Positions 15,603 to 52,947 of a stretch of 64,000 bases of DNA are shown here, in pieces. The notes beneath the pieces are model-generated. The model was not told the origin of the DNA. It worked only from the letters and a program-made list of their open reading frames with translations, and did no database searches. Every line of letters starts with the position of its first letter. The first letter of the stretch is position 1. The DNA is taken from contig NZ_JAAIUV010000001.1 of NCBI RefSeq assembly GCF_010975035.1, forward strand, positions 186,001 to 250,000, in the 5' to 3' direction. Position numbers and translations under genes: made by a program. Origin of the DNA: Neobacillus thermocopriae (GTDB lineage: Bacteria; Bacillota; Bacilli; Bacillales; Cytobacillaceae).

Positions 15603-17063
15603 TTATTTACGTCTTTTTAAAAATTTATCCTTTATTTTGTTTGTAATCAAAATGATGATTTCATCCTTGGTCAACCATAAGATGATAACATACATGATTA
15701 TACAAGTTGCAATAATAAGTATGAACAGCCAAATAGTCCCGCTAACAAATGAACGAATCACAAGTGATACCGGAATAAACAGTAGCGAATAGACAAGGTA
15801 TTTGAAATTCGTCCAAGACCATAACTGTAATGGGATTTGAAGGAATTTTCGAATATAAATATACTCACAAGCTATTAAGATAAAGTTGGCGATGGCAGTT
15901 GTTAGAATCGCCGTTTTAGCATCAAGCATCCCCAATTGAAGCAGTATGAAATTTAACAACAAGTTGGCCAGCCCACCGACAAATATGAATCGAACTAGGA
16001 TGTTTTCCTTCTTTTTAATGTAAATAACCTGATTGGATAAAATTGATTCAAAACCGAGTGTAATCATATAAAGTGAAAACATTGCCAATACAGGGCCAGC
16101 GTCTACATACTCCCTTCCCCCATAAACCCGGACACCTAAGTCCGAAATGACGTAGAGACCGATCGCCGCCGGGAACAGGAAAGCTGAGTAGATTTTAGCT
16201 ATTTTTTTTAGCAGTTTGAGATACTGCTCATTGTTCTCTCCACCCAATAAGAACGACAACCTTGGGATCGTCACTTGAATAATACTAAGCATAATGGCAT
16301 TAATCATTGTTGTAATTTGCTGGGCCAGCGTATAGTAAGACACCGACTTTTCATCGACCATTTCCCCGAGCATGAACCTATCCAATTGTGTATACAAGAT
16401 GTTCGCATTAGAAAAGATAACGACCAAAAATAGCGGTTTTAAATGTGGACGGAAGCTAATCTCCGAAAAATCAAATTTTATTCTTCGTTTAACATAAATA
16501 AAGCTGATAAAATTATTTAACCCAGTTGATAGTACTAACAATCCGACAAACATCAAGTAATCATCTGAGCTTTTAACGAGTGTCAGTAGTAAACCAACAT
16601 AGATTAATTTGACAATCATCGTTTTAGCCGTAATAAAACCAAAATCTTCAAAGGCTTCGTTAACCCATTCCACGTAAAAGATATTTAGAAAAAAGTTGAT
16701 AGCATAAACCATTAGGATCGGGAATAACGCCTTTTCTCCATATCCAAGGAAGGAAACAGCCAAATACGTTGCCAGTGTCACAATATTAGTAAGAAGACTG
16801 AAAGTAAATAGGCTAGTGAACAGCTGGGCCACCTTTTGCCGATCATTCTTAATGCGGCTTACCTCTCGTAGCCCATATTGATAAATACCAAAGGAGGCAA
16901 AAATAAAGAAGTAATTAAAAATAGTTTCCCCCAGCTTTACACTTCCAATTGCGTCGCGCCCCAGCGTCCGGTAGACATAGGCACCGATGATGACAGGAAC
17001 GATCAAATTAAAAAAATTTAAAGCAATCTTGTAAATCGCATTTTTTAGTAATGATTTTTGCAT
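15603..17063 (-). CDS. Wzx-like polysaccharide flippase (second copy)
   Basis: A 486-residue MOP-superfamily protein with about 14 helices; VPVIIGAYVYRTLGRDAIG near the N-terminus is the flippase signature and LDRFMLGEM lies in the middle. It follows the LicD-family gene (65-nt gap) and ends in a terminator, so it belongs to the wecC-tagA-licD unit. It may flip the lipid-linked glycan before or after phosphocholine addition. It is not a close copy of the flippase at 13217. Confidence 0.88.
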   Translation of the reverse strand: MQKSLLKNAIYKIALNFFNLIVPVIIGAYVYRTLGRDAIGSVKLGETIFNYFFIFASFGIYQYGLREVSRIKNDRQKVAQLFTSLFTFSLLTNIVTLATYLAVSFLGYGEKALFPILMVYAINFFLNIFYVEWVNEAFEDFGFITAKTMIVKLIYVGLLLTLVKSSDDYLMFVGLLVLSTGLNNFISFIYVKRRIKFDFSEISFRPHLKPLFLVVIFSNANILYTQLDRFMLGEMVDEKSVSYYTLAQQITTMINAIMLSIIQVTIPRLSFLLGGENNEQYLKLLKKIAKIYSAFLFPAAIGLYVISDLGVRVYGGREYVDAGPVLAMFSLYMITLGFESILSNQVIYIKKKENILVRFIFVGGLANLLLNFILLQLGMLDAKTAILTTAIANFILIACEYIYIRKFLQIPLQLWSWTNFKYLVYSLLFIPVSLVIRSFVSGTIWLFILIIATCIIMYVIILWLTKDEIIILITNKIKDKFLKRRK

Positions 17064-17127: not shown

Positions 17128-17868
17128 CTAAATATATTCTTTAACAATAACCGGCTTATCAATTCTCTCGATATTATCAGGCGACTCACCAGCATTCCAA
17201 TTTTCATCCTTTTGCATATAGGTTGGACCATAGTTATCAATGAGATATTGATGATAATTTTCCGGAATCTTAAACATTTCTCCCTTAAATTCATAATCCA
17301 TTAACCCCGTAAAATACGAGGTTACTTTACTTGTCCGATACCCTCTAGCAATTTGATATGTTGGATGATTTTCAAATTCCATCTCAAAACCGATTTCACT
17401 GAAATAGCACCAAATGATGTCATTTTCTGCCTTCCAATAGTAAAAAATATCAATATGTAAACCATGAAGATGAAACGCCTGTTCATAAATTTTCCCGTCC
17501 ATCTCATACTGTTTATAAAGCTTCACGCCTTTTTGCTCAAGAATCCTGACAAGCTCGGCTTTCTTTTTGTCATCAAAATCAAAACATCCAATATCCAAAT
17601 CTTTATCATGTCCGATAAAATCTTTTTCACGTACGGCACCAAGCAACGTTCCGTAATCAAGCCAGAATTCCTCACCAATTTCCGCAAATGCCTCTTTCAT
17701 ATATCTAAGCATTTCCATGCCATATATATGCACACTGTCCTTTTGCTTTTGAAATTGAACTTGATCATATTTTCTCTTGATTTTGATTAATAGCGGATTT
17801 TGTTTAGCTGTGCTGTAAAATCGGCTAGCTCTTAAATGCTTGATAAATTGATTCACTAACCTGCTCAT
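17128..17868 (-). CDS. licD: LicD family phosphotransferase (candidate phosphorylcholine transferase)
   Basis: The 246-residue protein has the LicD signature FWLDYGTLLGAVREKDFIGHDKDLDIG (read as two blocks): a nucleotidyltransferase-like GTLLG followed by DKDLD, which binds the metal and CDP-linked donor. LicD proteins transfer phosphocholine, or in relatives other phospho-groups such as ribitol phosphate, to glycans. The complete choline activation set is encoded 4-9 kb away on the same strand, which favours phosphocholine. I set the start at the ATG at 17868, directly after AAGGAGGAGAAC; the longer frame adds 21 residues across a terminator-like hairpin. The acceptor is presumably the polymer made by the surrounding genes. 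Confidence 0.82.
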   Translation of the reverse strand: MSRLVNQFIKHLRASRFYSTAKQNPLLIKIKRKYDQVQFQKQKDSVHIYGMEMLRYMKEAFAEIGEEFWLDYGTLLGAVREKDFIGHDKDLDIGCFDFDDKKKAELVRILEQKGVKLYKQYEMDGKIYEQAFHLHGLHIDIFYYWKAENDIIWCYFSEIGFEMEFENHPTYQIARGYRTSKVTSYFTGLMDYEFKGEMFKIPENYHQYLIDNYGPTYMQKDENWNAGESPDNIERIDKPVIVKEYI

Positions 17869-17885
17869 GTTCTCCTCCTTATACG

Positions 17886-17923
17886 CATGAAAAGCCTCTC
17901 TCTGAGAGTTGAGAAAGGCCTTT
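17886..17923 (-). terminator. Attenuator/terminator hairpin between tagA-like and licD genes
   Basis: On the minus strand AAAGGCCTTTCTC pairs with GAGAGAGGCTTTT and ends in TTTT, about 20 nt before the licD start. It lies right after the tagA stop, so licD is probably expressed by partial read-through. Confidence 0.65.
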
Positions 17924-17931
17924 GAACACAT

Positions 17932-18639
17932 TTATTTCCTTAACGTTTTCACTAGGAACATCGGTAAAATTAACTGCCTTTTCCAGCGCCACGGCTCTTT
18001 GACCAGGCGGTAAAACCATTCCAAACCTAAAGATTGAAAAAACTCCGGCGCCCTTTTCAAATTCCCTGAAATCACATCAAAGGAACCGCCAACACCTTGA
18101 AATACATATGGTGTCACTTTTTTCATATGATTGACAATCCAATATTCTTGCGTCGGACTTCCCAACGCCACAAAAAGTATTTCTGGCTGATGCCGGTTAA
18201 TGGTTTCAAGAATAACGGATTCATCCTTTTCGTATCCATGTAATGTACCGACAATTTGAATGCCAGGAAACTGTTTTTCCAGTTCCTTTTTTGCCGCCTC
18301 GGCTACTCCTGGTTTTCCCCCGTACATAAATATCCGTTTTCCCTTAGCGGCAGCAACTTGGCAAAGCTTTAACATCATATCAATTCCCGTTACCCGGTTT
18401 TTGATTTTTCCGCCTTTTAATTTAGAAGCTAAAATGACACCAATACCATCGGGAATCTGATAATCGGCTGAATTCAACAGTTTTTTTAATTCCTCATCCT
18501 TTTGGGCCTTCATAATTTTTTCCGGATTAATGGCCACGATAAAAGACTTTTTCTTCTTTTCAATATCCTGTATTAATAAGGAAGCCAGCTCATCATAATT
18601 GTAATTACATACATCCACACCGAGAAAATTTTCTTTCAT
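17932..18639 (-). CDS. tagA: WecG/TagA/CpsF family glycosyltransferase
   Basis: A 235-residue GT26 enzyme. DGIGVILASKLKG, RVTGIDM, FMYGGKPGV and FVALGSPTQE are family motifs. TagA adds ManNAc to undecaprenyl-PP-GlcNAc, the product of TagO, completing the linkage disaccharide of wall teichoic acids; WecG homologues use UDP-ManNAcA. Because the next gene upstream is a UDP-ManNAc dehydrogenase, either donor is possible here. AGGTGATTCAGT precedes the ATG and only 6 nt separate it from wecC, showing an operon. Confidence 0.88.
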   Translation of the reverse strand: MKENFLGVDVCNYNYDELASLLIQDIEKKKKSFIVAINPEKIMKAQKDEELKKLLNSADYQIPDGIGVILASKLKGGKIKNRVTGIDMMLKLCQVAAAKGKRIFMYGGKPGVAEAAKKELEKQFPGIQIVGTLHGYEKDESVILETINRHQPEILFVALGSPTQEYWIVNHMKKVTPYVFQGVGGSFDVISGNLKRAPEFFQSLGLEWFYRLVKEPWRWKRQLILPMFLVKTLRK

Positions 18640-18645
18640 ACTGAA

Positions 18646-19920
18646 TCACCTATTTTTAGAATCCCCCAGCACATGGACATCAAAACCAGCTTTCATCCAT
18701 GCTTCTCTTGGTAAACAATTCTTAGTATCAACAACAATTTTGGACCGTACAAGATTCGCGGTCTGCTTTGAATCAAGAATCTTAAATTCATCATGCTCCG
18801 TCAAGATTAAAACAATATCCGCCTTATTCAAAGTTTCTTCCAGATCCAAGGATTGCTGTGGCAGATTTTGTTCTTTTATATGGGGATCAAAAGCTGTCAA
18901 TTCCAATTTCATATCACTTAAATGATGGATGACTTCAAGAGACGGACTCTCGCGCATGTCATCGATATTGGCTTTAAACGATAAACCTAAGACTGCAATT
19001 TTCGGATTGCTAATTTGTTGTTGCTCACAAATTGTTTTCACCTTGTTAGCGACAAACAGAGGCATGGAATCATTGGTCTGTCGAGAAAGGTGAATGATTT
19101 TTGCATTTTCCGGATCCAGTTCAACAAGAAACCATGGGTCGACTGCAATACAATGCCCACCCACTCCTGGACCTGGAAGATGGATATTTACACGCGGATG
19201 ATGGTTTGCAAGACTAATTGCCTCCCATACATTTACCCCAATGTTCTCACTAATTCGTGCTAGTTCATTGGCAAAAGCAATGTTAACATCACGATACGTG
19301 TTTTCGATGACCTTAACCATTTCTGCAGTAGTGGCATCTGTTAAGAAAATTTCCCCTTTAACAAAGGCACGATATAAATCCCTCGTCATTTCTGAAGATT
19401 TTTCATTGATACCTCCGACAATCCGACTGTTATGAACAAGTTCTTCGAACACACGACCAGGGATGACACGTTCCGGAGAATGGGAAACAAATAATTCTGT
19501 TCCTATTTCCAATCCGCTTTCCTTTAATATTGGCAACATGATATCCTCAACCGTACGTGGCGGTACTGTCGATTCAAGGATGACAAGATTTCCCTTTTCA
19601 AGGTAAGGCACAATCGATTTGGTTGCGGCTTTGACATACTTCATATCTGCCGTTTTATCAGGATTAATAGGTGACGGAACTGCAATAATAAACACGTCCG
19701 CCTTTTCCGGTGTGGTGGAAACCGTTAGATTTCCACTGTCAATGGCAGCAATCAGCCGTTCTTCTAGTCCATTTTCTTCAATATGCAGCTGTTTATTTTG
19801 TATTTTTTGTACAGCAGCGGCATTAACGTCCACACCGTGTACTTTAAGACCATTATTGGCAAACATAACAGAGGTTGGGAGACCAATATAACCAAGGCCA
19901 ATTACACAAATTTTATTCAT
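18646..19920 (-). CDS. wecC: UDP-N-acetyl-D-mannosamine dehydrogenase (WecC-like)
   Basis: A 424-residue UDP-sugar 6-dehydrogenase. It shows the NAD-binding GLGYIGLP (8-15), the sugar-binding central domain, the catalytic cysteine in GPGVGGHCIAVDPWF and a C-terminal FKANIDDMRESPS block. The GGHC-IAVDP form and the ESTVPPRT block fit the WecC/UDP-ManNAc group better than the UDP-glucose group, which is represented separately at 30454. It would oxidise UDP-ManNAc (from MnaA, 37468) to UDP-ManNAcA. It is the first gene of the tagA-licD-wzx unit. Confidence 0.87.
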   Translation of the reverse strand: MNKICVIGLGYIGLPTSVMFANNGLKVHGVDVNAAAVQKIQNKQLHIEENGLEERLIAAIDSGNLTVSTTPEKADVFIIAVPSPINPDKTADMKYVKAATKSIVPYLEKGNLVILESTVPPRTVEDIMLPILKESGLEIGTELFVSHSPERVIPGRVFEELVHNSRIVGGINEKSSEMTRDLYRAFVKGEIFLTDATTAEMVKVIENTYRDVNIAFANELARISENIGVNVWEAISLANHHPRVNIHLPGPGVGGHCIAVDPWFLVELDPENAKIIHLSRQTNDSMPLFVANKVKTICEQQQISNPKIAVLGLSFKANIDDMRESPSLEVIHHLSDMKLELTAFDPHIKEQNLPQQSLDLEETLNKADIVLILTEHDEFKILDSKQTANLVRSKIVVDTKNCLPREAWMKAGFDVHVLGDSKNR

Positions 19921-20148
19921 AAAGTGACTTCCTTTCTATCATCCAATAAACTCATATTTTACTTTCACTGTTTATATACACATTGATAAGCTGATAAAAA
20001 ACTTTTTTTCAACTAATTGTAACAAAAAACGCATGTAAATGAAACTCTGAGCCCTGAATGATGTCGAATCTTATCATTTCATTTACCATTCAGAATCACA
20101 CAATAATTTACTATATTCACATCCAAAAAATAATGTGTCCTTATAAAA

Positions 20149-20174
20149 AAGAGAATGTCGTTCTACATTCTCCT
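20149..20174 (-). terminator. Terminator behind a decayed choline-binding gene
   Basis: GAGAATGT/ACATTCTC stem (20151-20158 with 20165-20172) followed on the minus strand by TTTTTTA. No intact minus-strand gene ends here; it follows the relic at 20184. Confidence 0.75.
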
Positions 20175-20183
20175 TTCATCATT

Positions 20184-20385
20184 GATTATGGAAACATAGC
20201 ACCGTCTTTACCAAGTCTATATGAACCTGTTTTCGTATTCGCTGCCATCCGTTCACTCTTTTCCCGTTTCATAATCTTAATAATAGAATTTATTCCTTCC
20301 CTGAACCCGCCCATTTATTTTTCCATTTTCAATAAAACTTCACGCTATCAAATGATTTATTTTTCCACTTAGCACAGACAAAATA
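20184..20385 (-). pseudogene. Relic of a choline-binding-repeat protein C-terminus
   Basis: On the minus strand, one frame ends in MAANTKTGSYRLGKDGAMFP followed by a stop. This closely matches the end of the intact NlpC/P60 protein next door (MAKNTTIDGYVLGKDGAWIK). Upstream, another frame reads NG, VQGRNKFYY and YETGKE with stops between, the broken remains of a GW...WYY repeat. A terminator follows immediately, as it would behind a real gene. The N-terminal and catalytic parts are gone. Confidence 0.65.
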
Positions 20386-20599
20386 GGTAGTTTCCATTTA
20401 GTATTACCTTTTAAATGATAAATAGTAATGAAATATTTCTTAGGTGCAGAATCTTTCCAAAACAGTATATGGGTGGCCAAAATCACATTTCTAATACAAA
20501 ATTAGTCAACATGTGTATTTTATCCATTTCAAATAATAGAATATTGTAAAGCAGCTAAAATAACAAATAATAAATTAATAGAATCATTTTTTATTTTTT

Positions 20600-20636
20600 C
20601 CAAAAAATGAAAGACAGAGATAAGCTCTCTGCCTTT
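20600..20636 (-). terminator. Rho-independent terminator after NlpC/P60 gene
   Basis: AAGGCAGAGA/TCTCTGTCTT stem (20611-20620 with 20626-20635, one G-U pair) followed on the minus strand by CATTTTTT, just past the stop at 20643. Confidence 0.85.
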
Positions 20637-20642
20637 TACTAT

Positions 20643-21449
20643 TTACTTTATCCATGCCCCGTCCTTACCGAGAACATATCCATCAATGGTTGTATTTTTA
20701 GCCATGATACCATTGCCGTACATATAGTACCATTTACCACCAGTAAACACCCATCCAGTTGCCATTCTACCGCTTGAATTTAAAAAGTACCAATTACCGT
20801 TCCAATATAGCCAACCTGTTCTCATGTCACCACTTGAATTTAAATAATACCAGCCGTTGTCATAAGCCCATCCTGTTTTCATTGCACCATCAGAACCTAG
20901 CAAATACCATTTCCCGTTATCTTTCACCCAACCAGTTTTCTTGACGCCATTTACATAATAATACCATTTACCATTTGAATACTTCCAGTAGCTGTCCTCT
21001 ACTACACGTTTGGCACCAATATATCTTTCAGCATAATAAGATGTGGATAAAGAACTGATCGTTACTTTATCTGCACCACTGGATGCATGAACAAATTGAT
21101 TGTCATCCAAGTAAATGCCTACATGGGATGGTCCTGCCTTATAAGTAGTAAAGAAAACAAGGTCACCTGTTTCCAACTCACTTTTTGATACAGGTTTTCC
21201 TACATTATAGATATCTGCAGCCGTACGTGGCAAGGAAACACCGACTTGCTTATATGTATAATTAATAAAGCCAGAGCAGTCAAAACCTTTTGGTGATGTA
21301 CCTCCCCAGACATATGGGGTCCCAATTAAACTCCGACCAACCTTCGCCGCCTGTTCACCTTTAGATGCAGCCTCAGCCTTATGTCCCCCAACTAGACCTC
21401 CTAGAAGTAGAGAACATGAAAGTAACCCACTAATTAATAACTTCTTCAT
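20643..21449 (-). CDS. NlpC/P60 endopeptidase with C-terminal choline-binding repeats
   Basis: This 268-residue protein has a signal peptide (1-27), an NlpC/P60 domain (about 32-150) with the catalytic cysteine in GFDCSG (C58) and histidines H109 (PSHVGIYL) and H121 (FVHASS), then 5-6 repeats of about 20 residues (154-268) of the form W-Y-x-x-G-x-W-Y-Y-x-x-x-x-G-x-M-x-T-G. The domain cuts gamma-D-Glu-diaminoacyl bonds in stem peptides. The repeats match CW_binding_1 modules, which bind choline on teichoic acids in streptococci. The adjacent lic genes make choline docking likely here too. It has its own terminator and a possible operator upstream. Confidence 0.92.
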   Translation of the reverse strand: MKKLLISGLLSCSLLLGGLVGGHKAEAASKGEQAAKVGRSLIGTPYVWGGTSPKGFDCSGFINYTYKQVGVSLPRTAADIYNVGKPVSKSELETGDLVFFTTYKAGPSHVGIYLDDNQFVHASSGADKVTISSLSTSYYAERYIGAKRVVEDSYWKYSNGKWYYYVNGVKKTGWVKDNGKWYLLGSDGAMKTGWAYDNGWYYLNSSGDMRTGWLYWNGNWYFLNSSGRMATGWVFTGGKWYYMYGNGIMAKNTTIDGYVLGKDGAWIK

Positions 21450-21485
21450 GACAACCTCCGACTAGAACTCTCTCATTTGTTAATT

Positions 21486-21511
21486 CTAGTATCTCATAAA
21501 CCATACTAGAT
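21486..21511 (-). promoter_or_regulatory. Inverted repeat upstream of NlpC/P60 gene (possible operator)
   Basis: TCTAGTAT and ATACTAGA (21486-21493 and 21504-21511) form a perfect 8-bp inverted repeat with a 10-bp spacer, about 37 bp before the start codon. The regulator is unknown. Confidence 0.35.
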
Positions 21512-21604
21512 TTAATTTACAGTTCATTATTAATACTATTACAGCAATATTTCAAAAACTGACATTTTTCGACTATTTTCATAGAAGTTATTCATGAAGC
21601 AATG

Positions 21605-21645
21605 ACAAAAAGCGAGGCAGACATATAATTTCCTGCCCCGCTTTA
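21605..21645 (-). terminator. Rho-independent terminator of the lic gene cluster
   Basis: AAAGCGGGGCAGGA pairs with TCTGCCTCGCTTT, followed on the minus strand by a short T-run, about 50 nt after the stop of the last licC gene. Confidence 0.8.
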
Positions 21646-21694
21646 CGATCTATAGTTATTCAATTAATGTGTTCTTAACTTAAATAACCATGTT

Positions 21695-22381
21695 TTACTC
21701 TTCAACCAACTTTTTTACTTTTTCTAAATCCTCCAAAGAGTCAATTTCATAGCTATCATTAGGATGAATCTCCTGGAGGTAAACGTTCAATTTACGAATA
21801 TTATCCTTGACGATATCATCCCAGTATAAGTTTTTAAAATCCCCACCAGCGACCGCTTCTTCTAGCTTCTTGACTATATACCGACCGTCTTCTTCGGTCC
21901 AATAAGAGACTCCACAGAGGATGTAATCATTCTCACCATCTCCTGGGATGAGATCGGTTATTTTATAATGTTCATCAAAACGAATCATCCATTCGTTTGT
22001 AAATTCGGGCTTTCTTGCACTAAAATACATGGAAGTCTTCGGATTCTTAAGTAAAAAATTACGATTTAAATAGTTATCGGCATCAATGACATAGGAATCT
22101 GGAAGATATTCCCTAACTAAATACATCGTGTAAATATTGTTATAAACATCATATTTGTCATTATGGACAAGTTTGACGCCGTATTTTTCTTTTAAATACT
22201 CAAACTTCTCGGTTAAATAACCAGTGACAACAATGATTTCATGAACACCGACTTCCTGTAAAAATTCAATCTGTTTCTCTAGCATCGGTTTCCCGTTAAT
22301 TTCAACTAATGATTTAGGGGTGGTTAAAGTGATAGGACGTAATCTCGTTCCCATTCCTGCTGCTAATAAAATGGCTCTCAT
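21695..22381 (-). CDS. licC: LicC-type phosphocholine cytidylyltransferase (copy 1)
   Basis: A 228-residue nucleotidyltransferase with LAAGMGTRLRPIT (nucleotide loop), PKSLVEINGKPMLEKQI, VVTGYLTEKF, and YNNIYTMYLV plus YVIDADNYLNRN. The last two blocks closely follow pneumococcal LicC. LicC makes CDP-choline from CTP and phosphocholine. A second copy at 23443 is about 80% identical; this copy reads SYVIDADNYL where the other reads SYVIDTDVYL. AGGAGAGCAGATAAA precedes both starts. A strong terminator follows. The duplicate may have shifted specificity, for example to another amino-alcohol phosphate. Confidence 0.86.
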   Translation of the reverse strand: MRAILLAAGMGTRLRPITLTTPKSLVEINGKPMLEKQIEFLQEVGVHEIIVVTGYLTEKFEYLKEKYGVKLVHNDKYDVYNNIYTMYLVREYLPDSYVIDADNYLNRNFLLKNPKTSMYFSARKPEFTNEWMIRFDEHYKITDLIPGDGENDYILCGVSYWTEEDGRYIVKKLEEAVAGGDFKNLYWDDIVKDNIRKLNVYLQEIHPNDSYEIDSLEDLEKVKKLVEE

Positions 22382-22473
22382 TTTATTTGCTCTCCTGTAT
22401 TTATTTCGTTTATCGTTTTCCGAGTTGGCAGTGCCATCATCGAGCCAACGTATTCTATTATACCAGAAATGAT

Positions 22474-23394
22474 TTATCTCTTCATTTCACATAGGAGTTC
22501 GTTTATGACCGGATCAGTTAAATTTTTACGTGCTCGATTCAACCGTTCCATACCATAAGTTCCAAAGTCGTCTCCCTTAGCTTCCTTATAAATCGTCCAC
22601 ATTGTCCAAAGATAATCTTGAAAAATTTTATTTAAAATTAGCCTTTGTTTCATTTCATCCGTAATCGGCTCACCATCAAAATAATGAGCTAAAAATATTT
22701 TTTCCTCTTCAGGAGAAAGGGACGATTCTAAGATATGGGAAGCAATATCCCAAGCTGGATCATTTAATCCACTATATTCCCAATCCAATAAATAAAGTTT
22801 TCCTTCACTCATGACGATATTTTGCGGGGCCGGATCGATATGACATGGCACAAGTGGAATATCCATTTTCTGATAGAATTCTTTTAACGCCATCACTTGG
22901 GCTTTTACTTCATCCATCCCATCAAATGGCTGGCCATTCGCTTCATACATGAGCCTTTCATATTGCTCCATTTTTTCAAAAACATCAAAACAGTTTTCCA
23001 TTGGCATATCCGATTGATGTAACCGCTTTAACATCTCTGCAGTTAATTTCATAAATGTTGGCTTTTGCACCATTTCTTCAGTTAGCGTGACAGCTCCTGG
23101 AATCATTTCGACAATCTTTATCCCAGTCTCTTCATCAAAAAATAAAATGTCTGCGTAAAAACCATATTCGCTGGCCAGAAGAGAATTGAATTTCTCTTCT
23201 TTTCTATTAATCATCTCGCTTGTTCCCTTCCCAGGGATTCGGATAACATATTTTTTTCCGTTCAATACCAATGGATAGTTTTTATTAGTCATACTCCCTA
23301 ATGGCTCTGTATTTCTTACTGCTTCATAAGCAATTTTTAGGGCAGCTTCACTAGTCTCGGCATCTTTTAATAATTGAATGAATGTTGGTTCCAT
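22474..23394 (-). CDS. licA: LicA-type choline/ethanolamine kinase
   Basis: A 306-residue aminoglycoside-phosphotransferase-fold kinase. GSMTNKNYPL is the nucleotide loop, VPCHIDPAPQNIV the Brenner catalytic motif (H-x-D-x4-N) and LLDWEYSGLNDPAWDIA the metal-binding DWE and signature of LicA. It phosphorylates choline after import. The ATG at 23394 is preceded by GGAGGGG. It lies between the two licC copies. The same type of kinase domain forms the C-terminal half of the fusion at 25204, so the strain has two LicA domains. Confidence 0.87.
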   Translation of the reverse strand: MEPTFIQLLKDAETSEAALKIAYEAVRNTEPLGSMTNKNYPLVLNGKKYVIRIPGKGTSEMINRKEEKFNSLLASEYGFYADILFFDEETGIKIVEMIPGAVTLTEEMVQKPTFMKLTAEMLKRLHQSDMPMENCFDVFEKMEQYERLMYEANGQPFDGMDEVKAQVMALKEFYQKMDIPLVPCHIDPAPQNIVMSEGKLYLLDWEYSGLNDPAWDIASHILESSLSPEEEKIFLAHYFDGEPITDEMKQRLILNKIFQDYLWTMWTIYKEAKGDDFGTYGMERLNRARKNLTDPVINELLCEMKR

Positions 23395-23414
23395 TTTTTC
23401 TCCCCTCCATTTTG

Positions 23415-23444
23415 AAAAAAAAAACGGGTACACTGACCCGTTTT
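23415..23444 (-). terminator. Terminator overlapping the end of licC copy 2
   Basis: AAAACGGGT/ACCCGTTTT stem (23421-23429 with 23436-23444), then ten T on the minus strand. It overlaps the stop codon of licC copy 2 and stands directly before licA, so licA would be expressed by read-through or from its own promoter. Confidence 0.85.
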
Positions 23445-24135
23445 ACTTACTCACAGCCAATAACTTATTGACTTTTTCAAGGTCCTCTAAAGAATCAATT
23501 TCATAGCTGTCATCCGGTTGAATTTCTTGTAAATAGACATCGAGCTGATCCAGATTGTTTTTAACAATTTCATCCCACCAAAACTCTTTAAAGGCTCCGC
23601 TTTCAATCATTTCTTCCAGTTTTTTGACGATATATTCCCCATCTTTCAGGGACCAGTACGAAACACCACAAAGAATGAATTCATCGTGACCGTCACCAAC
23701 TTCAATTCTTGTTACTCTGTTATTTTTGTCGTGACGGATCATCCATTCTCCTTTAAAATTCGGCTTTTTCGCACTAAAATACACGGAGCTCGCCGGATGC
23801 TTTAATAGAAAATTCCGATGTAAATATACATCCGTATCAATAACATAGGAATCTGGAAGGTAGTCCTTGACCAAATACATGGTGTAAATATTGTTATAGA
23901 CATCATACTTGTCATTATGAACAAGCTTGACTCCATATTTTTCTTTTAGGTACTCAAATTTTTCAGCTAAATACCCGGTAACGACAATAATTTCTTGAAC
24001 CCCTACTTCCTGTAAAAATTCGATCTGTTTTTCAAGCATTGGTTTTCCATTTATTTCAACCAACGGTTTCGGGGTGGTTAAAGTAATAGGGCGTAGTCTC
24101 GTTCCCATCCCTGCTGCTAATAAAATGGCTCTCAT
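23443..24135 (-). CDS. licC: LicC-type phosphocholine cytidylyltransferase (copy 2)
   Basis: A 230-residue paralogue of the protein at 21695, with the same LAAGMGTRLRPIT and YNNIYTMYLV blocks. Identity is highest in the first 120 residues and falls in the C-terminal third, where substrate contacts may differ. The 35 bp upstream of the start is also duplicated, so the copy arose by segmental duplication that included the ribosome site. It follows licB after a 113-nt gap and ends in a terminator. Confidence 0.86.
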   Translation of the reverse strand: MRAILLAAGMGTRLRPITLTTPKPLVEINGKPMLEKQIEFLQEVGVQEIIVVTGYLAEKFEYLKEKYGVKLVHNDKYDVYNNIYTMYLVKDYLPDSYVIDTDVYLHRNFLLKHPASSVYFSAKKPNFKGEWMIRHDKNNRVTRIEVGDGHDEFILCGVSYWSLKDGEYIVKKLEEMIESGAFKEFWWDEIVKNNLDQLDVYLQEIQPDDSYEIDSLEDLEKVNKLLAVSK

Positions 24136-24248
24136 TTTATCTGCTCTCCTGTATTCATTTCGTTTACTGCAATCATTCTTTCAGCACGGCTTTCCATTGG
24201 CGGAAGAAAAATGACTTTCTTGACAAAATCCTAGAATAATGTAAAGCT

Positions 24249-25220
24249 TTATGCCGTTTTCCTTCGGCCAAATATATTCATCCACTTTAATTCTTCCGGA
24301 GTTGCTACGGTTATAATGGAACCAGCTAAAATCATAATGCTATAAAATACTAGCTTAACAGTAATATCTGTGCCAAGAATGAGAAAGCTTAACAAAATAG
24401 CCCAGGCAGAATAAGAAATATTTAAAGCCATCGCCCGAGTCGGCCCGAGTGTATTAATCGCTTTATAGTAATATACATAGGAAGCCGTTCCTGAAAGGGC
24501 AATCACAGCAATTAAGAAGATTTCACTGCTTTGAAGCACCGTTCCCACTAGTGGATACCCTTTGAAAATTGGCATAATTATCACCGCATACGTAACAGCA
24601 GAAACAAGCTGGCGAATCTGCAATGCCTGTTCAGGTGAAATTTCATCATCCTTCATACCATAGGCTAAAATAACACACTCCATTCCCCAGCCGAAGATCG
24701 CCAGTAAAATAAATGTGAAACCTAGAACAACATTTGGAGACGTCTCTCCACCTGCAAATCCTAATAAGAAAATAAATAATATGCTTATGAATAATCCAAT
24801 CCAGTTTTTTATCGTTAAGCGATCTTTTAATAGAATGAAAGCGAAAAAGGCTCCTACCGCTGGATAAACGGCAGAAATGGAAGCTGAGAGGGAAGCCCCC
24901 AAATATTTTACCGCAAGGACATACCCCGTCATGCCGATTGGCCCACCTAATAGACCGCCCAACATGACCCAACGTCCACTTCTAGTAAATAATTTTTGAA
25001 AAGGGACTTTAAGCTCTCCACGAATCGCCAAATAAATCATCATCCAAAAGCTTGAAAGCATATCGTGTAGGAAAGTACTGACTAACGGAGCAAGAAAAAT
25101 GACCTGTTCCGTTGACATAAATAAGGCACGAGATAACACCATTCCTATTAAAACCGTGTCAAGCGCCCAAGTAAATCCAGAAAATAAACCATAAAACAAC
25201 CCTTTATTTTTTGATTTCAT
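24249..25220 (-). CDS. licB: LicB-type choline permease (EamA/DMT superfamily)
   Basis: A 323-residue protein with ten predicted helices in two EamA halves. The N-terminus (GLFYGLFSGFTWALDTVLIG) and GGLLGGPIGMTGYVLAVKYLG resemble LicB proteins, which import choline for phosphocholine decoration. The start is the ATG at 25220 after AAGGGGAATGATGT and lies 17 nt inside the preceding lic fusion gene, so translation is coupled. It is the only choline transporter candidate in the window. Confidence 0.85.
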   Translation of the reverse strand: MKSKNKGLFYGLFSGFTWALDTVLIGMVLSRALFMSTEQVIFLAPLVSTFLHDMLSSFWMMIYLAIRGELKVPFQKLFTRSGRWVMLGGLLGGPIGMTGYVLAVKYLGASLSASISAVYPAVGAFFAFILLKDRLTIKNWIGLFISILFIFLLGFAGGETSPNVVLGFTFILLAIFGWGMECVILAYGMKDDEISPEQALQIRQLVSAVTYAVIIMPIFKGYPLVGTVLQSSEIFLIAVIALSGTASYVYYYKAINTLGPTRAMALNISYSAWAILLSFLILGTDITVKLVFYSIMILAGSIITVATPEELKWMNIFGRRKTA

Positions 25221-27084
25221 ACATCATTCCCCTTATCCATTCATGATTGACATTCTTTCTTGCTCGGTTAAAGCGGTCTATTCCATAGGTACCGAAGTCG
25301 TCGCCTTTTGCTTCTTTAATAATGGTCCAAATGCTCCAAAGAAAGTCTTGGAAAATTTTATTCATTATCACCCTTTGTTGGATTTCGAGAGGGATATCAT
25401 CTGTTTGCAAATATAGCGATAAAAACAGCTCCTCATCCTCTTGAGTGAAATCACATTCGAGCGAATGAGCGGCTACATCCCACATCGGGTCATTCATTCC
25501 AGCATATTCCCAGTCAATCAAGTACATTTTGTCCTGACCGCTTTTCACGAAATTCTCGGGAACTAAGTCATTGTGACAAGGTGCCAACTCGATCTTCATC
25601 CTTTGATAGATTTCCTTTAAGGCCATGACTTGGGCTCTTACTTCATCAAAGTGTGGATAAGGCGTTCCCCCCGCAGCCTTCATTAGCTCCTCATACTCCG
25701 TGATTTTTTCAAAGACATTGAACTCATTAGCCATTTGTGCCCCAGAATGGTGCAGTTTTCTTAATACCGCAGTAGTCAGCATCATGTAATCTTGGCGTTT
25801 GGCCGTTTTTGGATTTAATGTTTCTGCATTTGGAATAAGCTCAGAAATTTTAACACCTGTTTCTTCATTAAAATAGATGAGGTCGGTATCAATACCTAAT
25901 TCGCTTGCGATGGCTGAGTTGATTTTCTCCTCTTTACGGTTAATCATCTTCTCCGTACCATTTCCTGGAATTCTTAAGACATATTCTTTGTTTTGGATGG
26001 TTACTTTAAAGTTCTTATTGGTCATTCCACCAAATGGTTGAATTTCCTTGATGTCTTCATAATTAACATCAAGCGCTTCAATTAAATAGCCTTTAATTTG
26101 ATTTTCGCGATACTCTGCTTCCTTCCGTTTTAAAATCTGATAAGTTTTATTGGTAATTACTTCATAATCTTGCTGGCTATCTATTTCTCCCCAAACAAGG
26201 TTGTGCATTTTTAAATAACCAATATTGTAATGTCTTGCTACATCTAGGAGCATGTATTCATAATTCATATACGGATTTTTATTGTATTCTTTAAACTCCG
26301 TAACCATTTTCGAAAACACTTCATAGGATAATTTGCTGATCCCTACCATTTCTCCATCAACATGGTTAAATTGATGGATGTCCTTCGAAACTTTGTATAC
26401 ATATCCGTTTCGGATTTCCACGAACGCTTCATCACCTGAACCGCTTTCATTCGTAATTAGAATGGTATCGCGCTGCGGATAAGACAAGAGCTCCTTGATT
26501 GCACGTTCCTCAATTAAAATATCATCCTCAATCAAGAGGAAATCCTCTGAAATATACTCATGGGCAAGTGCCAATGACGCCATCGATCCGGTCCATTTAT
26601 ATTTCGGATTATGAACAAATTGAAACTGATTGAATTCTGGTATTTCGCGAAACGCTTCTTTCTTATAGCCCGTTACGATGACAATATGATGAATTCCATT
26701 TTCCTGAAGGATTTCAATGTTTCGTTTTAGTAACGGAATTCCATCAAATGTCATTAAACCAGCCGGTTTGCTAAAATCTTTTCTCTGGCCTGCAGCCAAA
26801 ATAACCGCTTGTTTAATTTCAGTTAGTTGTTCCTGGTGGATATTAACCTTTTTTTGGTGAAATTCTTCAATACCCTTTTGCAGAAATTCAATACCTTTTT
26901 CGGTTAAAAAATATCTCATATTTCGGCCACTTTTTTCATTGAAAAGGTAGCCGTCTTCCATTAAATCATTAATTAAATAATTGACCTTTCCAATGGAAAT
27001 CCCACACAATTCAGCCATTTTTTTTTGATTTAATTTGGCATTTTTGTTAATCGCCTCTAATAATTGAAACAAGTGCTGTTCCAT
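25204..27084 (-). CDS. Fusion protein: winged-helix DNA-binding + LicC-like cytidylyltransferase + LicA-like kinase
   Basis: The 626-residue protein has three parts. Residues 1-75 are a winged helix-turn-helix (KMAELCGISIGKVNYLINDLMEDG is recognition helix and wing start). Residues 92-312 are a nucleotidyltransferase (AVILAAGQRKDFSKPAGLM, VVTGYKKEAF-like block, IEDDILIE). Residues 342-626 are a LicA-type kinase with CHNDLVPEN (H504, D506, N511) and IDWEYAGMNDPMWDVA. The nucleotide loop lacks the G-x-G-T-R-L-x-P of true LicC, so its substrate may differ. The start is the ATG at 27084 behind GGAGG; an in-frame TTG upstream lacks a site. It heads the lic cluster, behind a 25-bp palindrome. It may sense choline status and repress its own operon. 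Confidence 0.88.
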   Translation of the reverse strand: MEQHLFQLLEAINKNAKLNQKKMAELCGISIGKVNYLINDLMEDGYLFNEKSGRNMRYFLTEKGIEFLQKGIEEFHQKKVNIHQEQLTEIKQAVILAAGQRKDFSKPAGLMTFDGIPLLKRNIEILQENGIHHIVIVTGYKKEAFREIPEFNQFQFVHNPKYKWTGSMASLALAHEYISEDFLLIEDDILIEERAIKELLSYPQRDTILITNESGSGDEAFVEIRNGYVYKVSKDIHQFNHVDGEMVGISKLSYEVFSKMVTEFKEYNKNPYMNYEYMLLDVARHYNIGYLKMHNLVWGEIDSQQDYEVITNKTYQILKRKEAEYRENQIKGYLIEALDVNYEDIKEIQPFGGMTNKNFKVTIQNKEYVLRIPGNGTEKMINRKEEKINSAIASELGIDTDLIYFNEETGVKISELIPNAETLNPKTAKRQDYMMLTTAVLRKLHHSGAQMANEFNVFEKITEYEELMKAAGGTPYPHFDEVRAQVMALKEIYQRMKIELAPCHNDLVPENFVKSGQDKMYLIDWEYAGMNDPMWDVAAHSLECDFTQEDEELFLSLYLQTDDIPLEIQQRVIMNKIFQDFLWSIWTIIKEAKGDDFGTYGIDRFNRARKNVNHEWIRGMMYEIKK

Positions 27085-27097
27085 GCACAATTCCTCC

Positions 27098-27122
27098 GAT
27101 ATATTCAAAAATTGAACATATC
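27098..27122 (-). promoter_or_regulatory. 25-bp palindrome at the lic operon leader (candidate operator)
   Basis: GATATATTCAA (27098-27108) and TTGAACATATC (27112-27122) are reverse complements with one mismatch and a 3-bp centre. The palindrome abuts the Shine-Dalgarno of the winged-helix/LicC/LicA gene, the expected place for an autoregulatory site. Confidence 0.55.
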
Positions 27123-27165
27123 ATCATTGTACCCCACCCCAAAACCCATGTAAATAAAAATTATT

Positions 27166-27371
27166 AGAAAAGCGAAAGTCCCCTGATCAGTGGCGTATGG
27201 CTTCCTCCCAAAAGCTATCGCTTTCGGTCGTGCGATGCTTAGCTGCTGAAGCCTTCCTTGTGGTGGCCTCCAACTGAGATATAGGAAACACGAAGAGCGT
27301 TAGCGATTCGATGTTGACTTATCGTAGGGCGGAGACCGAAGGCGTCTCGTCGCTAGGAGGCTGGAGCTAGA
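27166..27371 (+). repeat. Dispersed ~200-bp repeat (copy C)
   Basis: Full-length copy from AGAAAAGCGAAAG to GCCGCTAGGAGGCTGGAGCT. It lies in the leader region of the lic operon. Confidence 0.92.
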
Positions 27372-27409
27372 CAATTCTCAAAGTCAAAAAGATATTTTCT
27401 CATCTAACC

Positions 27410-27523
27410 AGAAAAGCGAAAGCGCCCTGCCCAGCGGCGTATATCCTCCTCCCAAAAGCTATCGCTTTCGGTCGTGCGATGCTTTCAAAGCTTGCCTTCT
27501 GGTGGTCTCCTGGAAACACAAAG
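27410..27523 (+). repeat. Dispersed repeat, truncated copy D
   Basis: Starts as in copy C (AGAAAAGCGAAAGCGCCCTG) but stops after GGTGGTCTCC...GGAAACACAAAG, lacking the 3' half. It lies 38 bp after copy C in the same orientation. Confidence 0.88.
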
Positions 27524-27763
27524 ATTCAAACCTATCAATTAGATTCAATCGCCTGATAGAAAGATTAAACAAATAATAAGGATCGTTATCATTTTATTGT
27601 TGCTGTTCGGTGTCCAACTTATGAATAATGAAGGACAAATTGGGCGAGGGCAAGGAGAAAATGTCAATCAATCACAATAAATCTACCCTTACTCAGGGCA
27701 TAACGAAGATGTCTTTCAAAAGTAGAAAAACCATTCACAAATTAGAAAAGCGTAAACACAGGT
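27524..27763. other. Intergenic stretch without recognised feature
   Basis: Short frames occur but none has good coding character or a convincing ribosome site. AGAAAAGCGTAAACAC near 27744 may be a tiny further trace of the repeat start. Confidence 0.35.
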
Positions 27764-27796
27764 ATAAAAAAAGACTGTGCATCAAGCACAGTCTTT
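27762..27796 (-). terminator. Rho-independent terminator after LytB-like gene
   Basis: AAAGACTGTGC/GCACAGTCTTT perfect stem (27770-27780 with 27786-27796), then a T-run on the minus strand, 12 nt past the stop at 27808. Confidence 0.9.
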
Positions 27797-27807
27797 CTAT
27801 AAATCTA

Positions 27808-29994
27808 TTATTTTAATATCGGAACATCAAAATGCAAATTACTACGAGATTCAATGGTATCGTATATTTGTTTAATATTTTTTGCTTGTTTTACTGCCCA
27901 TTGAATATCGGTGGCATATTGATGATGACTGTTAAGGCCTGCTTCAGGATCCCAGCGCATTTTGTATAGAGTGTCTTGCTTTCTATTCGGATTATTTATG
28001 TATTGTTTAGCTATGTACTTAGCTCCTCCATAGATCGCCTTTGCCGGTGTATCCCAGCCCTGTTCATAAGCATATTGAGCTCCACATTCATCTGGACAAG
28101 AATCTTTGGCTCCAATGCCGTACATATTATAAACCTTTTTCCCATTCACAACAATTCCTTGGGCCAGCTTCGATGTACCTTTACCTGTTTCAAGAAAGGC
28201 ATGATTAATAAGATAAATTTCATTAATATTAAAATCTTTACTTGCCTGGATGAACGCCTCTGCCTGATCATGAAGAGTCCCTTTACCCTTAAGAACTTTA
28301 GCATTTAATTCTTTTGCATCTGTACCGGCGCTTCCAGATAAAACTAGGTATTGGTAATATTCCGTACTTGATGACTTAAAGTTGTTCGGATTGGCATAAA
28401 ATTGAACATCCTCTGCTTTAGCATTTCGCCAAGTTACCGGATATTTGATTTCATAAAAATCGCCTGATTCTGAGACGATTTGAACTAGCTGTTCCTTTAA
28501 TTCCCCATTGCTGTCTTTATAATATTTGTTCATAAAACCATATACATGTGCTGATAAATTGGGGCTTTCTAGAATATTGATTCCATTTTTTGTTGTCATC
28601 TTGCCTATCCCCGGATGGTTTGGGTCTAATTGAATTTCCTTTTTATTGACGAAACCATTTTGGTTCCTGTATTTATCCGTTTGCGGGGAATATTTCATTT
28701 GGATATCAACCATTTGTTTTAGAGAAATGGAATAGTTGGTTGTTTTCACGATTAGGCCAGTATTTAATACTCCATTAGGGAAAAAGTAATATTTTTTTCC
28801 GTCAATGACTTGTTCACCTGTCACCCTTTTTCCACTAGAGGTTAAATAATACCAATCTTCCCCCAACTTTAACCAGCCAGTCACCATCTCACCGTTGCTG
28901 TTTAAATAATACCAGTCATTTTTATCTTTTAACCAGCCGGTTTGCTTGACACCATTAGAATTTAGGAAATACCACTTCTTGTTGTAATACAACCAGCCAG
29001 TGGCCATCAATCCATCTCCATAAAAGTAATACCATTTGTTTTGGATGAGCTTCCAGCCAGTAAAAGCCGCTCCATCCTCTCCAAGATAGTACTTGTTTCC
29101 ACCAATGGTCAGCCAGCCTTTCCGCATTAAACCATCGGAACCGAAATAATACTTCTTATTGTCCTTAATGAGCCAACCTTTATGCATGGAACCATCTGCA
29201 TTAATATAGGCAATCTTATCTCCATCTTGGAACCAACCTTTAGGGGTCGTTGTCTTAGCACCGGATGCAGAGAAAGTATACGGCTTGCCATCAATCATCT
29301 TTTGACCGGTGACCATTTCACCACTTGGAAGCAAATAATACTTTACTTTCTTTTCCTCTAGCCAGCCGGTTTTCATCGCACCACTTTTCTCCAAATAGTA
29401 CCAGTGGCTTTTATCATACACCCACCCAGTTCTCATGGCACCGCTTGAATCTAAGTAATACCATTTACCTTTATCATAGACCCAGCCAGTTTTCATCGCA
29501 CCGCTACCGTTAAAATAGTACCATTTCTTTCCTATATATCTCCAACCCGTTATCATCGCACCGCTTGAATCCAAATAATACCAAATACTACGGTCTTTAA
29601 GCCAGCCGGTTTTCATCACACCACTTGAATCTAGGAAATACCACTTGCCTTTATCATAGATCCAACCCGTTTGCATGGCACCACTTCCATTAAAGTAGTA
29701 CCATTTCTTTCCTATATACTTCCAACCCGTTATCATCGCACCGCTTGAATCCAAATAATACTTAGTGTTGCCGTCTTTAAGCCAGCCTGTCTGCATGACA
29801 CCATTTTTTCCTAAATAATACCATTTCGTGTTATAATAGACCCAACCAGTTACTGGTTCACCTGAGGAATTCAAATAATACCATTTTTTTCCCTGGTATT
29901 TCCATGAATAAGTGCCTGACGCTTGGGCACTGATTGTTGTTGATGATAACAACATTGTCGCCAATGCAAATGCAGCCAATCTTTTTTTCTTCAA
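27808..29994 (-). CDS. LytB-like endo-beta-N-acetylglucosaminidase with N-terminal choline-binding repeats
   Basis: The 728-residue protein has a signal peptide (KKKRLAAFALATML to AQA), then about twenty choline-binding repeats of the W-x-Y-x-x-x-x-W-Y-Y-x-x-x-x-G-x-M-x-T-G type to about residue 415. A linker domain follows, then a C-terminal GH73 glucosaminidase with the probable acid in NHAFLETGKG (E602). Repeats first and GH73 last is the arrangement of pneumococcal LytB, which separates daughter cells. The TTG at 29994 is 6 nt from GGGGGG; an upstream TTG at 30021 would put residues before the signal. It has its own terminator. Choline is the likely wall ligand given the lic genes upstream. 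Confidence 0.9.
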   Translation of the reverse strand: MKKKRLAAFALATMLLSSTTISAQASGTYSWKYQGKKWYYLNSSGEPVTGWVYYNTKWYYLGKNGVMQTGWLKDGNTKYYLDSSGAMITGWKYIGKKWYYFNGSGAMQTGWIYDKGKWYFLDSSGVMKTGWLKDRSIWYYLDSSGAMITGWRYIGKKWYYFNGSGAMKTGWVYDKGKWYYLDSSGAMRTGWVYDKSHWYYLEKSGAMKTGWLEEKKVKYYLLPSGEMVTGQKMIDGKPYTFSASGAKTTTPKGWFQDGDKIAYINADGSMHKGWLIKDNKKYYFGSDGLMRKGWLTIGGNKYYLGEDGAAFTGWKLIQNKWYYFYGDGLMATGWLYYNKKWYFLNSNGVKQTGWLKDKNDWYYLNSNGEMVTGWLKLGEDWYYLTSSGKRVTGEQVIDGKKYYFFPNGVLNTGLIVKTTNYSISLKQMVDIQMKYSPQTDKYRNQNGFVNKKEIQLDPNHPGIGKMTTKNGINILESPNLSAHVYGFMNKYYKDSNGELKEQLVQIVSESGDFYEIKYPVTWRNAKAEDVQFYANPNNFKSSSTEYYQYLVLSGSAGTDAKELNAKVLKGKGTLHDQAEAFIQASKDFNINEIYLINHAFLETGKGTSKLAQGIVVNGKKVYNMYGIGAKDSCPDECGAQYAYEQGWDTPAKAIYGGAKYIAKQYINNPNRKQDTLYKMRWDPEAGLNSHHQYATDIQWAVKQAKNIKQIYDTIESRSNLHFDVPILK

Positions 29995-30159
29995 TACTTT
30001 CCCCCCACTAATCTCTATCAATCTACTATTGTTTCATCATTTGACTAAAATCCATCCGTAAAAAGCATCACCATCTTCTTTATAATTTGGTAAATTTATC
30101 ATATAGACTCTTTTATTCTCTCATGTATTAGAAATTTTTCAATAATAAAGTTGGATTTT

Positions 30160-38610: not shown

Positions 38611-38918
38611 AGGAACCTCCAAAATATAGTACAAACATGATACCAATGATTTACCAATACCAGGGTAATAGACAAAAAACCCTTAACCTTAACCATATCC
38701 ATGATAACAAATATTCCTTTACAGAAAAAGCAACACCCCTAACCTAGCGATACATCATCCTTCTTCCCCTTCTCAACTGTCCACCCTACGTAGACAAACT
38801 CTTAAAATTGTCCTCAAATACAGTAACTGAAACCCATTTTTACTAGACAACCTTCCTTTTGAAGTCGTTGGGAATATATTGCATAGGCAGTTACAATTTT
38901 ATGTAAGAGGTGAATTAA
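38611..38918. other. Divergent intergenic region with a short palindromic repeat
   Basis: Holds promoters of mnaA and of the protease. At 38776-38797 lies CTGTCCACCCTACGTAGACAAA, one of several copies of a short family (see 37438, 40437, 57324, 60645, 60687). Confidence 0.5.
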
Positions 38919-52914: not shown

Positions 52915-52947
52915 AAGACCTCCTCCCTTCTCCATCAACGACATCCG

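What the first reader, a model, noticed from the sequence alone, without database searches (positions are those of the whole stretch)
17128..30021. A pneumococcus-like phosphorylcholine system in a Bacillaceae chromosome
Seen: LicB-, LicA- and two LicC-type genes in one cluster (21695-25220), a LicD-family gene inside the adjacent glycopolymer locus, and three secreted hydrolases with choline-binding-type repeats (20643, 27808, 44829). Established: LicA/B/C make CDP-choline and LicD-type enzymes add phosphocholine to wall polymers in Streptococcus, where choline-binding proteins dock on it. Inference: this organism decorates a surface glycopolymer with phosphocholine and uses it to position its own autolysins. 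I do not know of this combination as a standard Bacillaceae trait.
Basis: partly seen in the sequence, partly recalled or inferred. Interest (0 to 1): 0.88.

Follow-up and report, generated by a model that had tools for sequence, protein, structure and literature searches.

The report
Pneumococcus-like choline wall in Neobacillus
A relative of Bacillus carries the gene set that pneumococcus uses to put choline on its cell wall and to hang its own wall-cutting enzymes on that choline, apparently built onto other sugar polymers, so this wall design can be studied outside the streptococci.

Summary
LicA, LicB and LicC also match their pneumococcal namesakes best. Eight proteins of the genome carry choline-type repeats. 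Of 193 genomes of the family, 21 of 25 with the lic fusion have at least 20 repeats, against 1 of 168 without. A TacF-type flippase lies by LicD in 23 of 24 fusion genomes with LicD and 0 of 10 LicD genomes without the fusion. The polymer genes around that pair vary (ManNAcA-type here, rhamnose-type in seven relatives), and no TagF-type polymerase was found here. I read it as a phosphocholine decoration and gatekeeper module on non-teichoic glycans, with choline-docked hydrolases. No chemistry was tested. The fused nucleotidyltransferase resembles PntC, not LicC, so a second head group is possible. New variant of a known kind.

The parts
25204..27108 (-). Fusion: winged HTH (about 12-55) + PntC-like nucleotidyltransferase (about 98-335) + LicA-type choline kinase (about 343-619)
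   Evidence: Pfam HTH_24, NTP_transf_3, Choline_kinase; kinase best PDB match pneumococcal choline kinase 4r77 4.8e-69, nucleotidyltransferase best match T. denticola PntC 6pd1 3.2e-27, LicC 1jyk 2.6e-8
24249..25220 (-). LicB, choline importer (EamA/DMT family)
   Evidence: only PDB match at E<=0.01 is LicB 7b0k, 1.3e-35 over 1-305
23443..24135 (-). LicC (copy 2), phosphocholine cytidylyltransferase
   Evidence: 1jyk 3.9e-65; LicC side of the tree
22474..23433 (-). LicA, stand-alone choline kinase; extra copy not in the 12 relatives' cassettes inspected
   Evidence: 4r77 4.4e-60; 52-55% to fused kinases in the 14 best rows shown
21695..22381 (-). LicC (copy 1), phosphocholine cytidylyltransferase
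   Evidence: 1jyk 5.2e-74; keeps D105, W136, Y190, W191, D192, E216, D218 of the pneumococcal enzyme
17128..17931 (-). LicD-family phosphocholine transferase
   Evidence: PF04991 2.1e-8; phmmer to FKRP 3e-6; AlphaFold model mean pLDDT 84, first 13 fold matches are FKRP chains, TMq about 0.40
15603..17063 (-). TacF-type flippase beside licD
   Evidence: teichoic acid flippase 9xzn 3.3e-62; TM2 and TM8 motifs of TacF present
17932..18639 (-). WecG/TagA/CpsF-family glycosyltransferase
   Evidence: TIGR00696 207.5 bits over its cut-off; TarA 184.7 and WecG-type 166.4 bits, both under their cut-offs
18646..19920 (-). UDP-ManNAc dehydrogenase-like (WecC)
   Evidence: NF008286 443.1 bits, cut-off 459
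13217..14659 (-). second MOP flippase (wzx1)
   Evidence: PF01943; 9xzn 4.9e-31
10528..11970 (-). Wzy_C-domain polymerase or ligase
   Evidence: PF04932 3.1e-24
11988..13052 (-). GT4 glycosyltransferase
   Evidence: PF00534
9263..10411 (-). GT4 glycosyltransferase
   Evidence: PF00534
7008..8072 (-). TagO/WecA-type sugar-phosphate transferase
   Evidence: TIGR02380 161.7 bits, under cut-off 326
2111..3178 (+). LytR-CpsA-Psr ligase
   Evidence: PF03816 7.7e-51
37468..38646 (-). UDP-GlcNAc 2-epimerase (WecB)
   Evidence: TIGR00236 553 bits over cut-off
20643..21449 (-). NlpC/P60 endopeptidase with choline-type repeats
   Evidence: PF00877, PF01473, PF19127; CbpF 2v04 1.7e-35 and first fold match 4.9e-14
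27808..30021 (-). glucosaminidase with choline-type repeats
   Evidence: PF01473 299.6 bits, PF01832
44829..47297 (+). Amidase_3 with choline-type repeats
   Evidence: PF01473 464.7 bits, PF01520
3..1787 (-). amino-terminal part of a 5'-nucleotidase-type choline-repeat protein that continues left of the window

Best explanation
Choline is imported by LicB, phosphorylated by LicA-type kinases and activated to CDP-choline by LicC. LicD puts phosphocholine on a lipid-linked repeat unit in the cytoplasm. The TacF-type flippase beside it passes the decorated unit outward, where Wzy-type and LytR-type enzymes polymerise it and anchor it to the wall. Secreted hydrolases with choline-type repeats dock on it. 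Here the repeat unit probably contains ManNAcA rather than a polyol-phosphate backbone. Across the family LicD and the flippase form a portable decoration and gatekeeper module used with different polymer loci. Shown: gene identities, conserved residues, neighbourhoods, co-occurrence. Inferred: substrates, polymer chemistry, gatekeeping, docking.
For: LicA, LicB, LicC and the flippase each have the pneumococcal protein as best solved relative. No PEP mutase found. Repeats: CbpF is the best PDB match by sequence and fold for the NlpC protein. licCA-licB-licC in that order, with a repeat glucosaminidase one to three genes upstream, in 12 of 12 cassettes fetched, out of 13 relatives with a fusion at least 70% identical; G046 was not fetched. 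At least 20 repeats in 21 of 25 fusion genomes, 1 of 168 others, Fisher 4.3e-23. LicD in 24 of 25 against 10 of 168; those 10 have 0-8 repeats. LicD with a TacF-type flippase in 23 of 24 against 0 of 10. A paper lists licD1, licD2 and tacF together in the pneumococcal lic2 region (PMC7368946, passages).
Against: No wall chemistry or binding data. LicD is weak by profile. Three of the five arginines named for TacF substrate binding are changed: R333 is Tyr and R15 is Asn in 21 of 21 rows, R250 is Gln in 20 and Asn in 1. The glucan-repeat model passes its cut-off on 44829 (186.4 against 147.7) while the PspC and PspA models, though higher in bits, are much longer and stay under theirs. Exceptions: G005, G042 and G057 have fusion, LicD and flippase but 12, 8 and 0 repeats, G063 has 14; Ectobacillus antri (L055) has cassette, LicD and flippase but no repeats seen in the 21.9 kb fetched; G191 has cassette and repeats but no LicD match; G084's LicD lies far from its cassette with no TacF-type neighbour; G048 has 28 repeats without the fusion. 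Fisher values ignore relatedness. ManNAcA rests on a WecC score just under its cut-off.
Confidence: 0.78

Rival explanations
1. The cassette makes another head group, such as phosphoethanolamine or aminoethylphosphonate, and the repeats bind something else.
For: The fused nucleotidyltransferase matches PntC better than LicC (3.2e-27 against 2.6e-8), lies on PntC's side of a 100/100 branch and has Glu at both PntC positions and no Trp at 136.
Against: Two stand-alone LicC copies keep the LicC residues; LicB matches the choline importer; no PEP mutase found; the repeats go with the fusion.
Confidence: 0.1
2. LicD adds phosphocholine to a glycolipid or lipoteichoic anchor rather than to a wall glycopolymer.
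For: The only NCBIfam match of LicD at E<=0.001 is a diacylglycerol cholinephosphotransferase (39.5 bits, cut-off 225).
Against: LicD lies next to or near a TacF-type flippase among polymer genes in 23 of 24 fusion genomes with LicD.
Confidence: 0.1
3. The repeats are general carbohydrate-binding modules and their link with lic genes reflects shared ancestry or a shared surface-gene region.
For: Toxin and glucansucrase repeats appear among the PDB matches; the glucan-repeat model passes its cut-off on 44829; 37 of 168 genomes without the fusion have at least one repeat, G048 has 28.
Against: Genomes with the fusion and at least 20 repeats occur in seven genera; in three of the four genera with both states every fusion genome exceeds every listed genome without it. 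Trp follows the conserved Gly in 4 of 4, 13 of 16 and 23 of 27 repeat-like hits of my pattern in the three window proteins (that Trp marks choline binding is recalled).
Confidence: 0.14

Closest known systems
Streptococcus pneumoniae lic1/lic2 system with TacF and choline-binding proteins
   Same: LicA, LicB, LicC, LicD, TacF-type flippase beside LicD, choline-repeat wall hydrolases
   Different: ManNAcA-type or, in relatives, rhamnose-type polymer loci; no TagF-type polymerase found in this genome; one LicD; an extra HTH-PntC-like-LicA fusion; changed TacF pocket residues; repeat proteins with NlpC/P60, L,D-transpeptidase, SLT, SpoIID and 5'-nucleotidase domains
Haemophilus influenzae lic1 (phosphocholine on lipopolysaccharide)
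   Same: licA, licB, licC, licD logic (PMC7368946, passages)
   Different: Gram-negative lipopolysaccharide acceptor; the passages seen speak of choline-binding proteins only for pneumococcus and relatives
PntC phosphonate tailoring
   Same: fused nucleotidyltransferase domain resembles Tde-PntC in residues and tree place
   Different: no PEP mutase found; kinase fused instead of the aminotransferase of Tde-PntC (PMC6697681)
Cluster-III TacF homologues of Bacillus and Clostridium (PMC13385700)
   Same: possibly the group to which 15603-17063 belongs; membership not computed
   Different: [quoted passage not shown] here such proteins lie beside LicD in genomes with a lic cassette

Membership tests
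lic phosphocholine pathway | LicB-type choline importer | tested here: met
   7b0k 1.3e-35
lic phosphocholine pathway | LicA-type choline kinase | tested here: met
   4r77 4.4e-60 and 4.8e-69
lic phosphocholine pathway | LicC with choline-type pocket residues | tested here: met
   both stand-alone LicC keep D105, W136, W191, D192, E216, D218
lic phosphocholine pathway | LicC-type pocket in the fused nucleotidyltransferase | tested here: not met
   Glu at 105 and 192, Ala at 136
lic phosphocholine pathway | LicD transferase | tested here: met
   PF04991 over cut-off, FKRP-like fold
lic phosphocholine pathway | phosphocholine present on the surface | not testable with these tools
   needs 31P NMR, mass spectrometry or TEPC-15 staining
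TacF flippase | sequence similarity and TM2/TM8 motifs | tested here: met
   9xzn 3.3e-62; TM2 motif in 21 of 21, TM8 motif in 20 of 21 rows; not exclusive, as 3 of 4 wzx1 rows have the TM8 motif and 1 of 4 a TM2-like match
TacF flippase | R15, R230, R250, R269, R333 for diphosphate, GlcNAc and phosphocholine | tested here: inconclusive
   R269 kept in 21 of 21, R230 in 19 of 21; R15 and R333 changed in 21 of 21, R250 changed in 21 of 21 (20 Gln, 1 Asn)
choline-binding proteins | repeats of about 20 residues of the PF01473/PF19127 type | tested here: met
   fold matches to CbpF and LytA modules
choline-binding proteins | binding of choline | not testable with these tools
   needs choline-agarose or DEAE binding
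teichoic acid of TagF type | glycerophosphate polymerase PF04464 | tested here: not met
   no match at E<=1e-5 in this genome; the control rings in B. subtilis

The most novel reading that the evidence does not exclude
LicD and a TacF-type flippase form a portable gatekeeper module that places phosphocholine on whichever lipid-linked glycan the species makes (ManNAcA or rhamnose type), which would give the cluster-III TacF homologues their function; and the HTH-PntC-like-LicA fusion supplies a second phospho-amine, so that the wall carries two head groups, one docking choline-binding hydrolases and the other not. A predicted consequence is a nutritional choline requirement, or its relaxation, in these bacteria.
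Probability: 0.35. Interest if true: 0.85.

Novelty: new variant of a known kind. Interest (0 to 1): 0.74.

Why it matters
If true, the full pneumococcal logic (choline import, CDP-choline, LicD, gatekeeper flippase, choline-docked hydrolases) works in Neobacillus and relatives on a polymer that is apparently not a teichoic acid. It offers a function for TacF homologues that a 2026 paper leaves without one, separates the decoration module from the backbone it decorates, and gives other hosts in which choline dependence and autolysin targeting can be studied.

Tried and rejected
Aminoethylphosphonate pathway: rejected for lack of a PEP mutase match. Classical wall teichoic acid by TagF: no PF04464 match. 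The idea that every nucleotidyltransferase here is a LicC: rejected for the fused one. LicD missing in four relatives by protein search (G039, G051, G052, G060): rejected after a profile search found a stronger, different LicD within about 19 kb of the fusion in each. Plasmid link of the fusion: 17 plasmid records match, all under 60% identity. Phage endolysins with such repeats: 154 phage records, 135 of them named Streptococcus phages and no Bacillus name in the tally, so no support from Bacillus phages. The NlpC model has low confidence over residues 1-81, so only its repeat part (blocks of over 90 from about residue 181) is used. Literature: the term sets found no paper; some searches listed papers (15 of 19, 8 of 14), none of which, from title and start of abstract, reports this in Bacillaceae; the library holds only open-licence papers. 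Papers opened: PMC6697681 (passages, one section), PMC13385700 (passages, two sections, first part of the discussion), PMC6813931, PMC7368946 and PMC12017771 (passages). Recalled, from no call: phosphocholine-like antigen has been reported in some Bacillus, Clostridium and Lactococcus strains, and choline-binding proteins in Clostridium beijerinckii; both would lower novelty. On rechecking I lowered the main confidence from 0.80 to 0.78 and raised the general-carbohydrate rival from 0.12 to 0.14, because the glucan-repeat model passes its cut-off on 44829.
Full report
Setting. The window is C1:186001-250000 of a 3.2 Mb genome in 54 contigs. Its genus holds 61 genomes in the search. Contig G010:C130 (7479 bases) has the same length and the same-sized lic and repeat frames as the N. 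fumarioli record NZ_BCUZ01000130.1, so the genus is Neobacillus, family Bacillaceae. The species of the window itself was not determined.

What is there. From 31788 down to 7008 these genes lie on one strand: a nucleotide-sugar dehydrogenase (ugd), repeat glucosaminidase, fusion, licB, licC2, licA, licC1, repeat NlpC/P60, wecC-like, tagA/wecG-like, licD, TacF-type flippase, GtrA, second flippase, GT4, Wzy, GT4, a galU-like gene (read by eye, no family search), tagO-like. That they are one transcription unit was not tested. LicA, LicB and LicC match solved pneumococcal proteins best. The flippase next to licD matches pneumococcal TacF at 3.3e-62 and the second flippase at 4.9e-31. LicD is weak by profile but is the only one found in the genome, and its model matches FKRP.

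Repeat proteins. Eight proteins carry the repeats: NlpC/P60, glucosaminidase, two Amidase_3, a 5'-nucleotidase type, an SLT transglycosylase, an L,D-transpeptidase with a GDSL hydrolase, and a SpoIID type. In NCBIfam, pneumococcal PspC or PspA models give 627, 374 and 99 bits and the glucan-repeat model 186, 132 and no match for 44829, 27808 and 20643; the models differ greatly in length, and only the glucan model on 44829 passes its own cut-off. The repeat part of the NlpC protein folds with high confidence and matches CbpF first (E 4.9e-14), with whole-model TM about 0.43; LytA modules superpose better over fewer residues, and clostridial toxin repeats also appear.

Substrate residues. A published comparison gives Asp105 and Asp192 plus an aromatic box in pneumococcal LicC and Glu104 and Glu196 in PntC (PMC6697681, passages and one section). 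On an alignment of rows I chose from the fetched loci, 22 of 22 stand-alone LicC rows keep Trp136, Trp191 and Asp192; position 105 is Asp in 16 and Glu in 6. Of 25 fused nucleotidyltransferases, 21 lie on PntC's side of a 100/100 branch; these have Glu at 192 in 21 of 21 and at 105 in 20 of 21, and no Trp136 in 21 of 21. The other 4 fall on the LicC side. The window proteins follow this split: stand-alone copies LicC-like, fusion PntC-like.

Co-occurrence. Genomes not listed were without a match, as those answers say. At least 20 repeats: 21 of 25 against 1 of 168; LicD: 24 of 25 against 10 of 168. The cut at 1e-100 leaves out distant relatives of the fusion, for example in G018 and G025 (2.0e-34 and 3.5e-37). 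Inside genera g8, g15 and g19 the fusion genomes have more repeats than every listed genome without it; in g1 the medians differ (43 for the fusion genomes) but three fusion genomes fall below the highest one without it. Fisher values ignore relatedness.

The LicD and TacF pair. I had the LicD surroundings of all 24 fusion genomes with LicD and of all 10 LicD genomes without the fusion (window; some stretches are short or cut by contig ends). A flippase at least 50% identical to 15603-17063 lies within about 2.1 kb of LicD in 23 of 24 (all but G084) and 0 of 10. Some of the 10 have a LicC-like gene near LicD (46% in G019, 45% in G156, 35% in G026), and G018 has a 33% fusion-like gene there, so they may decorate something by another lic-like route. 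The polymer genes around the pair differ: wecC-type in 12 genomes, rmlABCD-type in 7, neither seen in 4 (rml identity by HMM only for G049, the rest by similarity to it). In G039, G051, G052 and G060 the LicD itself is a different, stronger family member. Of 21 complete flippases aligned (G046, G056 and G131, cut, left out; Ectobacillus added), R269 is kept in 21 and R230 in 19, while R333 is Tyr and R15 Asn in all. In the TacF paper R230 and R333 hold the phosphocholine phosphates (PMC13385700). A single LicD and a single kept arginine would fit one phosphocholine per unit; this is inference. The paper says its cluster-III homologues from Bacillus and Clostridium have no functional information.

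Mechanism. Shown: gene identities, conserved residues, neighbourhoods, co-occurrence. Inferred: import and activation of choline, transfer to a lipid-linked unit with ManNAcA, flipping, polymerisation, anchoring and hydrolase docking. The ManNAcA reading rests on WecB (37468-38646, over cut-off), WecC just under its cut-off and a WecG/TagA-family transferase. No PEP mutase and no TagF-type polymerase were found.

Peculiar to the window. A stand-alone LicA and a second LicC lie in the cassette; 12 of 12 relatives' cassettes fetched lack them. The two LicC share 516 of 693 aligned DNA columns and do not pair as sisters in the tree, though with weak support.

Novelty. The pathway is known from streptococci, and related fusions, some without the HTH part, occur in Clostridium, Peptostreptococcus, Streptococcus anginosus and Bacteroidales. 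What I did not find in print is the whole set in Bacillaceae, its tie to the repeats, and the LicD plus TacF module on changing backbones (searches; open-licence papers only).

Noticed in passing
window 3-1787 (minus) and L032:5721-8501: A 5'-nucleotidase and metallophosphatase protein with choline-type repeats starts in the window and continues to its left; a frame at 51061-52944 looks related by eye and shows no repeats.
   Followed up: partly
window 21695-24135: Extra LicA and second LicC in the cassette, not seen in 12 relatives' cassettes inspected; origin unknown.
   Followed up: partly
G005, G042, G057 (L050, L051, L166-L168): Lic fusion, LicD and TacF-type flippase with few or no choline-type repeats; in G005 and G042 split or multiple fusion-like frames lie side by side.
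   Followed up: partly
G048 and G191: G048 has 28 repeat matches without the fusion; G191 has cassette and repeats but no LicD match.
   Followed up: no
window 58908-60443 and 60647-61567: Two neighbouring amidase-like frames of similar sequence without choline-type repeats, read by eye from the translations.
   Followed up: no
L035:2519-3643: A SpoIID-type protein with choline-type repeats, which would link choline docking to sporulation-type wall cutting.
   Followed up: no
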